Of a stretch of DNA of 64,000 nucleotides, positions 8,635-64,000 are shown piece after piece. The translations under genes and the position numbers were made by a program. Under the pieces are notes generated by a model. The model saw nothing but the letters and a program-made list of their open reading frames with translations, was not told the origin of the DNA and searched no databases. Where the stretch lies: positions 1 to 64,000 of the IMG/VR virus record IMGVR_UViG_3300050821_006071; one strand, 5' to 3'. This stretch comes from a virus. Position 1 is the first letter of the stretch; each line of letters begins with the position of its first letter.

Positions 8635-8705
8635 CTCCCGTTCATGGATTCGAACCACGATAGCGAGAACCAAGGTCTCGCGTCCTGCCTTTGGACGAAA
8701 CGGGA
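8635..8705 (-). tRNA. tRNA-Gln (TTG anticodon)
   Basis: Full cloverleaf can be drawn: acceptor TCCCGTT/AACGGGA, D stem GTCC/GGAC, anticodon stem CGAGA/TCTCG with loop CCTTGGT, T arm CGTGG-TTCGAAT-CCATG, discriminator G, no encoded CCA. Positions 34-36 read TTG (Gln CAA/CAG). Position 33 is C instead of the nearly universal U, which could impair decoding or be an adaptive feature. 71 nt. Confidence 0.85.
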
Positions 8706-8765: not shown

Positions 8766-8832
8766 TGACGACACCGGGAATCGAACCACGGGGAAGCGAG
8801 CTTATGAGGCTCGCACCGTGCCTACTGCCGTC
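8766..8832 (-). tRNA. tRNA-Met (CAT), D-arm-poor
   Basis: Acceptor GACGGCA/TGTCGTC pairs fully (one G-T), anticodon stem CGAGC/GCTCG encloses CTCATAA, and the T arm has loop TTCGATT with a five-pair stem if one T is bulged. Only 12 nt separate acceptor and anticodon stems, so no normal D arm can form. It is either a specialised or a decaying tRNA. Anticodon CAT could also be read as Ile if the C were modified to lysidine. 67 nt, leftward. Confidence 0.65.
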
Positions 8833-61031: not shown

Positions 61032-61988
61032 TCAGGTGGCGTTGTTGCTGAAGTAGGCCGCCGCGCGAAGGTCGTTAGACCTTGCGTCCATACGGATATA
61101 ACCAAGGTAGCCAATTTGCAAGTAGTCGGCATAACGCTCGGTAAGGCGCATCATGGTAGCGCCGTTAACCTGGCGTGCGACCATGGCCGTCTTGAAGTCC
61201 CCGAAAAGCAGTCCGCCGGCGGTTGATGCCGTGGTGGAGACGTTAGACGTATTTTGGTCAACGACAACCGGATACCCGTACAAAGTGTCGGGCTGACCGG
61301 GCGCAACGGCAGGAGACCACAACGGGTGCCCATATGCATCGGTGATTGAACGGAGCATTGCAAGGGTGATGTCATTCGCCACGAAAATGCAGCGGCCGGT
61401 GTTCCTGTAGGCAGGGTCAACGGTGGCGATCATGCCAAGCACGTCGTCAAATCCAATGAGGCCGGCACCAAGCTTGGTGGTTGCCGTAGTGCCGCCAAGA
61501 ATCGTGAACGCCTTGCCGCCTGCTGTTGCCGCCCAGTTGCCTGACGTGCCAGAGAGGTAAACCCCTCCGAGGGCAGGAGCTGACTGGTGACCACGCGCAA
61601 CAAGGGCCGTCTCGATGCCGAGGAAAGCGCTAGAACCTGTGCCCGAGTGGATCTCTGCCGCAACCTTACGGCCGATGGATTCGCCAATTCTATCATTGAC
61701 AAATCCGTCAAGATCGAATGCCGAATCATTAATCAACTGAACCGACGCGAGAATGACGCCAGAAACGATGGTCCAGGCGTTAAGCATGCCCTGACCGAAC
61801 TGGTAGTCAGTGCCGTTAGAGTCACCACCGAAGCCGAGTTGCTGCGCTTCGGTGATGTACCTACCAACGATCTGAGTTGGGTCAACAGTAGGCCAGGGCA
61901 TGGGCTGACCAGAGTCAGTCTGGATTAGCTGGATATAGGGCAAAATGCCCCCGTATGCCTTCAGGGCAATTTGCAAGTTGTGCCAAAA
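61032..61988 (-). CDS. Major capsid protein, 3' exon
   Basis: 318 codons, in frame with the 5' exon after removal of the intron. FWHNLQIALKAYGGILPYIQ continues the HK97 A/P-domain start; later VSGVILASVQLINDSAFDLD, VAAEIHSGTGSSAFLGIETA, VATVDPAYRNTGRCIF-type P-loop and E/G-loop regions. Ends LRAAAYFSNNAT. The open frame continues upstream to 62003 (MSNKS) but that part is intronic. Confidence 0.88.
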   Translation of the reverse strand, partial: FWHNLQIALKAYGGILPYIQLIQTDSGQPMPWPTVDPTQIVGRYITEAQQLGFGGDSNGTDYQFGQGMLNAWTIVSGVILASVQLINDSAFDLDGFVNDRIGESIGRKVAAEIHSGTGSSAFLGIETALVARGHQSAPALGGVYLSGTSGNWAATAGGKAFTILGGTTATTKLGAGLIGFDDVLGMIATVDPAYRNTGRCIFVANDITLAMLRSITDAYGHPLWSPAVAPGQPDTLYGYPVVVDQNTSNVSTTASTAGGLLFGDFKTAMVARQVNGATMMRLTERYADYLQIGYLGYIRMDARSNDLRAAAYFSNNAT

Positions 61989-62906
61989 CGATTTGTTACT
62001 CACTCGCTAGAGTGGGGTAGGTCATTTCTGCCCACCTCTGAATCTTTGCCATCGATTCAGACCAGACTATATTTTCAACCTTCAACAGAAGAACCGAGCG
62101 CAAGATACTTGGCTACATCGGCGGGAATTGAACTGACCAATTCACTTTGGTCTAGTGCCCAATCCCATTTGACGATAATCAAGTTGCAATTGCGGTGAAC
62201 ATAAGAACGGATGCAATGCTTGCATGCCTTCTTGGGATCATGCCCAAAGGGGCAACGACGGTTGTGGTCCACGTGCCCAGCGCTTCCCGAATTTTTATCA
62301 AAGACGGGAGCGAGCATGGGATCGGGGCATCGCACCCAACCACACCGCGTTGTATCAAGCAAACTTCTAAAACGATACGGAGGGTTTGGATAATCCAAAT
62401 TTCGATGCTCTTGGGAGCATGACGGACACCCATATTTTAGAATACACACCGCACGCAGCGTTTGTGTAGCTTGACATTGCAAGCATTGCACAAGATACCA
62501 ATAGCGATACTTACTGGTAGACTTGTCAATGCATTCGATTATCTTACGTTCGTGGTAAACATCGCCAAGGCTCAGAGCCACGGTTTGATGCTTCAATTCG
62601 CCTGGTTTGCGCGTAATGCCAAGAGAGTCTAGGTGGTTGTAAATAACACCCGTACTGCATTGGAATTTCTCAGCAATACGGATGACGGGCCAGCATTCGT
62701 CCATGTATAGACGTTGTAGCTCGTCCTCATCTAGTACCATCTTTAGCATAGCGCCTCTTCTAGCTAATAGGTTGCTTGCGTGTAGTCGTTACGGTGTCCG
62801 TATAGCTTTCGCTAATTGGTTCCCTCGGTATTCCCCGTTTGATTGGTGGGGTTCACCGATACAGCAAGTTATCAATTCACCTTACGGTGAAAGGGGGCTT
62901 TTGAAG
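61989..62906 (-). other. Group I intron in the major capsid gene
   Basis: 918 nt. 5' exon ends ...ATGGGT (U at 62907) and the intron ends in G (61989). Splicing gives ATG GGT | TTT TGG CAC, in frame. The 5' end folds as P1 with GCCC pairing the exon GGGU (U-G at the splice site) and P2 TTCACC/GGTGAA. P7 halves: GACTA (62783-62787 complement) and the hallmark ATATAGTC (near 62065). The HNH ORF lies between the P7 halves, in the P8 region. Confidence 0.85.
62075..62749 (-). CDS. Intron-encoded HNH homing endonuclease
   Basis: 224 aa. N-terminal HTH (LQRLYMDECWPVIRIAEKFQ), zinc-like CxxC (VQCLQCQ, YGCPSC) and the His-Me finger core VDHNRRCPFGHDPKKAC with CIRSYVHRNCN. Type close to endonuclease VII/HNH of phage introns. 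It would cut intron-less capsid genes to spread the intron. Confidence 0.88.
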   Translation of the reverse strand: MLKMVLDEDELQRLYMDECWPVIRIAEKFQCSTGVIYNHLDSLGITRKPGELKHQTVALSLGDVYHERKIIECIDKSTSKYRYWYLVQCLQCQATQTLRAVCILKYGCPSCSQEHRNLDYPNPPYRFRSLLDTTRCGWVRCPDPMLAPVFDKNSGSAGHVDHNRRCPFGHDPKKACKHCIRSYVHRNCNLIIVKWDWALDQSELVSSIPADVAKYLALGSSVEG

Positions 62907-63503
62907 ACCCATTGGAATCATGTAGCCAGCGGTGTAGCCGGTAGCCCCAGCAATACCCGGCTCGGTGCCACCCGTGCTAAGCGCGTTCACGTCAAGGGCC
63001 GCGCGGTATTCCTGCTCGGTCCAGTTGACATCACGCGTAGCGAATTGAGGGTAACCCGTGCGGACGTCGCGCCCGTGGGTATCCTTGCCCTGCTCATACT
63101 GCTTCGCGCCATGGGGGTGGCGAATGACAGTCGGGGAAGAGTAGATACCCCAGGCCTTCCGCTCATCAGGGTTCATGGTGTCGGTGGAGTTGGATGCCAT
63201 GAACTTGAGGAACGCGGTTTCATAGAGGCGTTCCTCGGTGGGCTTGGGCGTTCCGTCGGGCCGAGTGCCGGTCTCAATCTGAGTGCGGCTCTCGTCAGCA
63301 ACATCACTGAGGGTCTTGAATTGCTCGATGCGACGAATGTCTTCGTCAATCTGAGTAATTTTCTTGTTGCGCTTGTCGAAATCTTGGCGATCATCGCTGG
63401 TCAGCTCAACGCCTGTTTCGAGCTTCTCCATGATGGCGCGGCAGCCATCCCAGATCTTGGCCTTCTTCTCACGCAGTTCACGAATCTGAGTCGTGTAATC
63501 CAT
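62907..63503 (-). CDS. Major capsid protein, 5' exon
   Basis: 199 codons. N-terminal ~95 residues are a charged coiled coil (RELREKKAKIWDGCRAIMEK, TQIDEDIRRIEQF), the HK97 delta domain removed by protease. N-arm and start of the E-loop follow (YRAALDVNALSTGG), ending in GYTAGYMIPMG. Runs 9 codons further (LQKPP...) if unspliced, giving a truncated 208-aa product. Exons together make a 517-aa HK97-type capsid protein. Confidence 0.88.
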
Positions 63504-63529: not shown

Positions 63530-64000
63530 TCAGAAACCCATATCGACATCGCGGCTTATCATGCGTAGACGCGCAAGAATAAGTGCTTGGTCGTTTGGGA
63601 TGTTTTCCGAAGTGGATTCATCCGGCTTCGGCTCGGCCGACCTGCCAGCGTCGTTGTCTGAAACGGCGTCGGTGGTGTCCAACTGTTCATGCTTAACCAG
63701 ATGGCTAGCATGCGTGGCGGCACTCGCGATGAGTGCTATTGCCTGCTTAACATCATCAGGGAGTGACTTGGGGTCGGCTCCACCGATAAGTTTCAATGCC
63801 TGACTGAGCAGTGCATCAATCTGCGGAATGCGCTTCTTGGTGCCGCTGGTCAGGTCGCTCGTGTCATCCTTGCGAGATTCGCAAACGTGGGCGGCTCGGT
63901 CGCCGCTCAGCTTGGCCCCGCATGCCGTACAGAACTTGCCGCTCGGGGCCGCTGTCGTCATGGGCTTGCCGCAACTAGAGCAGTATTTTCCGTACTGCCC
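63530..64000 (-). CDS. Zinc-ribbon protein upstream of capsid gene (partial)
   Basis: At least 156 aa visible; the frame is open to the window edge (YGKYCSSCGKPM precedes ATG 63961), so the true start is outside. Two CxxC pairs (CSSCG, CTACGAKLSG) form a double zinc ribbon, then an acidic, helix-rich part (DALLSQALKLIGGADPK; DDVKQAIALIASAATHASHL). Possibly a scaffold-like or accessory head protein; not recognised. Confidence 0.6.
   Translation of the reverse strand, partial: GQYGKYCSSCGKPMTTAAPSGKFCTACGAKLSGDRAAHVCESRKDDTSDLTSGTKKRIPQIDALLSQALKLIGGADPKSLPDDVKQAIALIASAATHASHLVKHEQLDTTDAVSDNDAGRSAEPKPDESTSENIPNDQALILARLRMISRDVDMGF

What the first reader, a model, noticed from the sequence alone, without database searches (positions are those of the whole stretch)
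61989..62906. Group I intron with HNH endonuclease splits the major capsid gene
The two halves of an HK97 capsid protein join in frame (GYMIPMG + FWHNLQ) when 918 nt are removed. Splice-site U and terminal G, the P1 U-G pair and P7 halves GACTA/TAGTC fit group I. Capsid output would therefore depend on RNA splicing, an unusual place for an intron and a possible late regulatory switch.
Basis: partly seen in the sequence, partly recalled or inferred. Interest (0 to 1): 0.78.

Follow-up and report, generated by a model that had tools for sequence, protein, structure and literature searches.

The report
Mobile group I intron in capsid gene
A self-splicing, mobile RNA element sits inside this phage's main shell-protein gene; it is a real example of something seen before in a cultured phage, and its relatives turn out to favour shell-protein genes across many unrelated phages.

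Summary
On the minus strand, exons 63503-62907 and 61988-61032 join in frame into a 517-aa HK97-type major capsid protein when exactly 918 nt (62906-61989) are removed. Rfam Intron_gpI matches the insert (E 0.0026, below its gathering score). Splice-site U, terminal G, P1/P10 and P7 fit group I. In all 18 relatives read at the junction the gene is uninterrupted there. The closest (L001, 81% identical) instead holds a HEG-less sister intron at codon 492/493 of the same gene (core tree 100/100).

It is not a new kind: Mycobacterium phage LittleE has a homologous, experimentally spliced intron in its capsid gene (PMC3706429). Nor is capsid an unusual place for this intron lineage. In gene-blind scans 37 of 49 distinct close relatives lie in major capsid genes of several sequence families, some with four or five introns. 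Other phage group I introns sampled alike also hit capsid genes most often.

The 224-aa ORF in P8 is probably an endonuclease-VII-type homing nuclease with an N-terminal HTH; "HNH" is unproven. Nothing supports a late regulatory switch; site variability and intron-less relatives point to a selfish element. Splicing was not tested here.

The parts
62907..63503 (-). Major capsid gene, exon 1 (199 aa: N-terminal domain and start of the N-arm, up to G199)
   Evidence: in-frame join; phrog_10 major head protein 7.9e-4; aligns with relatives L001-L007
61989..62906 (-). Group I intron, 918 nt
   Evidence: RF00028 62038-62916(-) E 0.0026; own model R1 83.5 bits, window being one of its training rows; absent from all 18 relatives given
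61032..61988 (-). Major capsid gene, exon 2 (318 aa, HK97 fold family)
   Evidence: PF05065 2.2e-40; TIGR01554 6.1e-49
62895..62903 (-). Internal guide sequence CAAAAGCCC: GCCC pairs with exon 1 GGGU (P1, U.G at the splice site), CAAAA with exon 2 UUUUG (P10)
   Evidence: 10 contiguous pairs across the join; 314 of 20,000 shuffles reach it
62877..62879 (-). In-frame stop of the unspliced exon-1 frame at intron nt 28-30, before the ribozyme core (208-aa product)
62773..62872 (-). 5' half of the ribozyme core (P3, P4, P5, P6, 5' strand of P7)
   Evidence: model R1; P3 shows compensatory changes in 37 aligned cores
62783..62787 (-). P7 5' strand, GACUA
   Evidence: sequence; Rfam alignment
62065..62069 (-). 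P7 3' strand, UAGUC, after the P8 insert
   Evidence: sequence; Rfam alignment
62075..62749 (-). Intron ORF in P8, 224 aa: N-terminal HTH-like part and C-terminal Cys/His-rich endonuclease-VII-like part; likely homing endonuclease
   Evidence: residues 5-54 match phrog_8446 'HNH endonuclease' 4.3e-4; residues 160-217 38% identical to the ORF L098:2482-3192, whose same region matches PF02945 at 22.0 bits

Best explanation
This is a mobile group I intron in the HK97-type major capsid gene of an uncultured tailed phage. Inferred mechanism: after late transcription the RNA folds into the ribozyme (P1/P10 guide at 62895-62903, P3-P8 core). Exogenous G attacks after the GGU Gly-199 codon, and the exons are ligated to encode the full capsid protein. 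An in-frame stop at intron nt 28-30 keeps ribosomes off the core. The ORF in P8 is probably a site-specific DNA endonuclease (endonuclease-VII-type metal finger plus HTH) that copies the intron into intron-less capsid alleles. The element is selfish rather than regulatory. It belongs to a lineage that preferentially occupies virion genes, above all major capsid genes, mostly after GGU. Its nearest sister sits, without an ORF, at another conserved Gly codon of the same gene in a related phage. Shown here: anatomy, homology, empty sites, sister relationship, gene preference in the samples. Inferred: splicing, nuclease activity, homing.
For: In-frame join and capsid families. RF00028 match to the window and to L001:4221-4418, 45.6 bits, E 2e-8. 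Empty site in 18 of 18 relatives given to (of 39 found), and uninterrupted capsid alignments in 38 of 39, some not covering both sites. P1/P10. Compensatory changes in P3 across 37 cores. Window and L001 introns are sisters, 100/100, and mutual best matches at 82.9%. Homologue LittleE spliced in vivo (PMC3706429 section 19 read whole), with the homology seen. GGT at the 5' splice position in 38 of 49 close-lineage introns versus 11-18 of 49 in neighbouring windows. Exactly one such intron in the 70.6-kb record.
Against: The window's Rfam score is below the curated threshold, and no RNA data exist. The ORF has no Pfam domain, no relative found in viral contigs or phages by the searches used, and its single-sequence fold failed (pLDDT 36), so nuclease activity rests on two weak similarities. 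The P1/P10 pairing is only moderately beyond chance (about 1.6%).
Confidence: 0.88

Rival explanations
1. The intron is a regulatory switch: unspliced RNA makes a 208-aa N-terminal (scaffold-like) protein and splicing times capsid production.
For: The unspliced frame ends cleanly at 208 aa, and the cut lies near the start of the capsid domain (exon 2 matches PF05065 from profile position 16).
Against: The site is empty in 18 of 18 relatives given. The closest relative has its sister intron near the 3' end of the gene, where no such N-terminal product would result. LittleE capsid splicing was judged presumably extremely efficient by its authors.
Confidence: 0.05
2. The intron is a relic in part: splicing still works but the ORF is dead and mobility is lost.
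For: No recognisable Pfam nuclease domain, 36 of 37 introns with both P7 strands recognised (duplicates included) lack an ORF-sized P8 insert.
Against: The ORF is intact over 224 codons, and its Cys/His-rich C-terminus resembles an intact endonuclease-VII-like ORF next to another intron-bearing capsid gene (L098).
Confidence: 0.2
3. It does not splice: two capsid fragments are translated separately (exon 2 from GTG 62003) and assemble, or the gene is dead.
For: An exon-2 ORF with a GTG start exists (323 aa).
Against: The whole ribozyme anatomy is present, no convincing ribosome site precedes the GTG (by eye), and a homologue splices.
Confidence: 0.03

Closest known systems
Mycobacterium phage LittleE gp13 capsid intron (Pope et al. 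2013, PMC3706429)
   Same: Group I intron in a major capsid gene, after a GGT codon in the N-arm motif region (GTGG^YAVP); homologous core (81.7-85.5% over 62-71 nt; R1 80.5 bits); carries an ORF; intron-less relatives exist; splicing shown by RT-PCR and N-terminal sequencing.
   Different: LittleE's ORF lies 3' of the core on the opposite strand, and the paper calls it related to LAGLIDADG and HNH proteins; here it lies in P8 on the same strand. The insertion is six codons apart relative to the GY motif (by eye), and the two capsid proteins show no significant BLAST similarity.
L001 intron (IMGVR_UViG_3300036793_000028), L001:4231-4476
   Same: Sister intron (100/100) in the orthologous capsid gene (81% identical protein), also after a conserved Gly codon ending in U.
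   Different: No ORF, 246 nt, at codon 492/493 instead of 199/200.
BAKA/Wanda-type tail-gene intron (Omegavirus phages)
   Same: Homologous HEG-less intron in a virion gene; splicing shown by RT-PCR for BAKA; R1 91.7 bits for Wanda (L169).
   Different: In a minor tail gene; no ORF.
Endonuclease VII (PF02945) type nucleases
   Same: C-terminal His- and Cys-rich segment shared with the ORF L098:2482-3192.
   Different: The window protein itself does not reach PF02945 and has a different N-terminal half.

Membership tests
Group I introns (RF00028) | Conserved P3-P9 catalytic core | tested here: met
   RF00028 full-model match 1-253, E 0.0026, but 25.2 bits versus gathering 50; sister L001 45.6 bits, E 2e-8; P3 compensatory changes
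Group I introns (RF00028) | U at end of exon 1 in a U.G pair of P1; G at intron end; P10 | tested here: met
Group I introns (RF00028) | Precise excision restores the gene; intron-less alleles exist | tested here: met
Group I introns (RF00028) | Self-splicing of the RNA | not testable with these tools
   no RNA data
LittleE-type capsid intron | Homologous intron core | tested here: met
LittleE-type capsid intron | Same insertion site and same ORF arrangement | tested here: not met
   site six codons away relative to the GY motif; ORF in P8 on the same strand versus 3' of the core on the opposite strand
HNH homing endonuclease | HNH catalytic domain | tested here: not met
   no HNH family in Pfam at E<=10; the phrog 'HNH' matches cover only residues 5-54, the HTH-like part
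Endonuclease VII-like nuclease (PF02945) | PF02945 catalytic metal-finger domain | tested here: inconclusive
   only by similarity to L098:2482-3192 (38% over 58 aa), whose own PF02945 score is 22.0 against a cut-off of 23.6
Mobile (homing) intron | Nuclease cuts the intron-less allele and the intron is copied in | not testable with these tools
   inference from anatomy

The most novel reading that the evidence does not exclude
Phage major capsid genes are the main reservoir of a lineage of small, mostly HEG-less group I introns. These spread between different GGU sites in the most abundant late mRNAs (capsid, tail tube), probably by reverse splicing into RNA and recombination back into DNA, and occasionally pick up an endonuclease-VII-type gene (as here) to home. 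Some capsid genes have thereby been cut into five or six exons, so virion assembly in these phages depends on several ribozymes at once.
Probability: 0.4. Interest if true: 0.75.

Novelty: new member of a known kind. Interest (0 to 1): 0.5.

Why it matters
The single intron is a further case of a known phenomenon. What it uncovers is larger: phage group I introns are usually discussed in nucleotide-metabolism, polymerase, terminase or lysis genes, yet in the samples taken here major capsid genes of several sequence families are the commonest recognisable host genes, some with four or five introns. If general, capsid annotation in viromes is often broken by introns, and the paired window/L001 introns give a clean system for asking how HEG-less group I introns move to new sites.

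Tried and rejected
Looked for relatives of the intron ORF: none by patterns in viral contigs or by tblastn in phages; one weak PDB hit (E 1.4); one NCBIfam hit at E 0.014 far below its cut-off (IS256 variant), rejected. AlphaFold of the ORF alone gave pLDDT 36, so no fold search was run.

A simple automatic P1 finder gave GGT-ending exons for only 16 of 50 introns because it often chose other pairings; it was replaced by a position count (38 of 49, window and LittleE among the 49; L060 and L021 lacked enough upstream sequence and were dropped).

Model R1 reached 69 bits in only 2 of 114 loci (L379 at 78.9, L345 at 70.9). No capsid gene was recognised at L379 and its host gene stayed unknown; no tRNA was found at L379 or L345; L345's host gene was not examined further. 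It neither supports nor refutes the capsid preference outside viral contigs.

Four close introns were too short for the automatic PHROG container A5; those in L038 and L051 were assigned by tblastn instead and L263 stayed unassigned. The assignment of the 49 to host genes is my reading, partly by exon similarity to a typed representative. Pfam and PHROG counts per family overlap, so no exact union is claimed for A4.

Full report
WHAT IS THERE. The window is bases 1-64000 of a 70,631-base virus record. Beyond and at its end, read on the minus strand, come a putative small terminase gene, an HNH-like ORF, large terminase, portal and protease, then the major capsid gene (names by eye except the capsid). 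The capsid gene is split: exon 1 at 63503-62907 and exon 2 at 61988-61032. Removing 62906-61989 gives one 517-aa frame. Exon 2 is an HK97-type capsid (PF05065 2.2e-40; TIGR01554 6.1e-49). Unspliced, the frame ends after 208 aa.

IT IS A GROUP I INTRON. Rfam's Intron_gpI covers the insert along its whole model (25.2 bits, E 0.0026; E 0.027 for 64 kb). The score is below the curated threshold, partly because of the ORF in P8 (inference). The guide sequence CAAAAGCCC pairs with both exons: GCCC with GGGU of exon 1 (U.G at the splice site) and CAAAA with UUUUG of exon 2. Ten contiguous pairs were reached by 314 of 20,000 shuffles. P7 halves GACUA and UAGUC are in place. In 37 aligned cores P3 shows compensatory changes in five of its six pairs (one of these five is broken in 10 rows), while P4 and P5 hardly vary.

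EMPTY SITES AND A MOVED SISTER. A capsid search found 7 relatives and an alignment search 39, which include the 7 contigs. Of the 39, 38 align without interruption, though some do not reach both sites. At codon 199/200 all 18 relatives given to one search are uninterrupted. The closest, L001 (81% identical), has no insert there but a 246-nt HEG-less group I intron at codon 492/493 (RF00028 45.6 bits, E 2e-8); that site is uninterrupted in the window and in the 15 relatives readable there. Both sites follow conserved Gly codons. The Gly codon ends in U where an intron sits, but the empty counterpart is GGG in L001 and GGC in the window. The two introns share a distinctive longer P6, are each other's best match (82.9%), and are sisters with 100/100 support among 42 cores. 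So homologous introns occupy two places in one gene in related phages.

PRECEDENT. A DNA search of GenBank phages with the introns hit 30 and 33 records, mostly Mycobacterium phages with a tail-gene intron, and LittleE, where the match lies in the major capsid gene annotated as containing a putative group I intron. Pope et al. 2013 (PMC3706429; passages, section 19 whole) showed splicing of the LittleE capsid intron by RT-PCR and N-terminal sequencing and of the BAKA tail intron by RT-PCR. From their peptide I place LittleE's junction after GGT-GGT, with an 808-nt intron (the paper's text gives 819-820 bp). The paper also cites a capsid intron in lactococcal phage Tuc2009.

CAPSID GENES ARE THE USUAL HOME. 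After removing identical cores, 49 distinct introns outside the window and LittleE remain (handles 51 with them; L001's own contig, found again gene-blind as L102, is one of the 49). By exon similarity and family searches, 37 of 49 lie in major capsid genes: 20 in the phrog_1357/Phage_capsid_3 and _4 type, 8 in the phrog_2263 type, 6 in PF05065/phrog_10 types, 2 in phrog_752, 1 in Phage_cap_E/phrog_29. Four lie in tail genes, 3 in phrog_13692 of unknown function, and 5 are unassigned. In the automatic count on 45 flanks, phrog_1357 alone has 14 members. As a comparison, 78 distinct downstream flanks of other group I introns from the second scan gave PF05065 10, SU10_MCP 9, Phage_capsid_4 9, Phage_capsid_3 1 (overlapping), against ribonucleotide reductase 4 and portal 3 (PHROG counts). 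So capsid is also the commonest recognisable host there. Caveats are in Tried and rejected.

MULTI-INTRON CAPSID GENES. In L075 capsid exons are separated by four gaps. Rfam finds introns in three of them and one more just downstream, and the fourth gap holds an R1 hit: five introns in all, the last one lying past the end of the query exon. L120 has four on the same reasoning. L018, L037, L038, L051, L107 and L108 have two each; the two in L107 are sisters, 100/100. The 5' exon carries GGT at the splice position in 38 of 49 introns, against 11-18 of 49 in six neighbouring windows.

THE ORF. The 224-aa ORF fills P8. Its N-terminal part matches phrog 'HNH endonuclease' families only over residues 5-54, an HTH-like stretch (HTH_11 at E 0.25). 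Its C-terminus is 38% identical over 58 aa to an ORF directly downstream of the intron-bearing capsid gene of L098, which matches Endonuclease_7 at 22.0 bits, just under the cut-off. L026, another capsid intron of the lineage, carries a 207-aa ORF with a DHDHxxGxVRGILCxxCN pattern in its 5' part (the family name for that pattern is recalled). I therefore favour an endonuclease-VII-type homing nuclease. In one search, 36 of 37 introns with both P7 strands recognised (duplicates included) have only 12-61 nt in P8, the window being the exception. L098 (free-standing neighbour), L026 (ORF in the 5' part) and the window (ORF in P8) look like stages of nuclease capture. Collaborative homing is described in PMC10448857 and PMC2988022 (passages).

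SWITCH OR SELFISH? Nothing supports a switch: sites differ between relatives and most relatives lack the intron. The early in-frame stops (nt 28-30 in the window, nt 4-6 in L001) fit the known need to keep ribosomes off the core (recalled for T4 introns; only a title was seen, in a reference list).

LITERATURE CHECK. Eight searches showed no paper that reports, in its listing or the passages read, capsid genes as the main home of phage group I introns or capsid genes with four or five introns. Passages read: PMC12363816 reports 2,513 introns in gut jumbo phages, with terL and nrdD as examples; PMC10448857 reports ICP1 genes with several introns; PMC11835236, a group I database, has no 'capsid' in its main text; PMC10580990, PMC7431792 and PMC8541194 do not describe capsid introns in the passages seen. 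Subscription papers and most preprints are not covered.

Noticed in passing
L075 (IMGVR_UViG_3300043752_000086): A phrog_1357-type capsid gene interrupted by five group I introns; L120 has four.
   Followed up: partly
L098:1265-3192: An intron-bearing Phage_cap_E-type capsid gene is followed at once by a free-standing endonuclease-VII-like ORF related to the window's intron ORF, an arrangement like collaborative homing.
   Followed up: partly
L026:3057-3680 (-): A 207-aa endonuclease-VII-like ORF in the 5' part of a capsid-gene intron of the same lineage, overlapping the core at its 3' end.
   Followed up: partly
L107:3363-4434 (-): Two sister introns (100/100) within one capsid gene, as if one had been copied to a second site.
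   Followed up: partly
L379, L345, L291, L374, L318 (bacterial genome contigs): Related group I cores scoring 66-79 bits in bacterial genomes; the three whose titles were shown (L291, L318, L345) are candidate-phylum (Patescibacteria-like) MAGs; RF00028 passes its threshold in three of the five (L291, L374, L379); host genes not identified.
   Followed up: partly
window 8635-8705 (-) and 8766-8832 (-): A tRNA (49.6 bits) and a weak second tRNA-like match (26.2 bits, below threshold) in the phage.
   Followed up: no
L008:3530-5149 (-), which continues the ORF at window 63530-64000: The 539-aa ORF upstream of the capsid gene, by position the prohead protease, carries a long C-terminal extension with zinc-ribbon-like CxxC pairs.
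   Followed up: no
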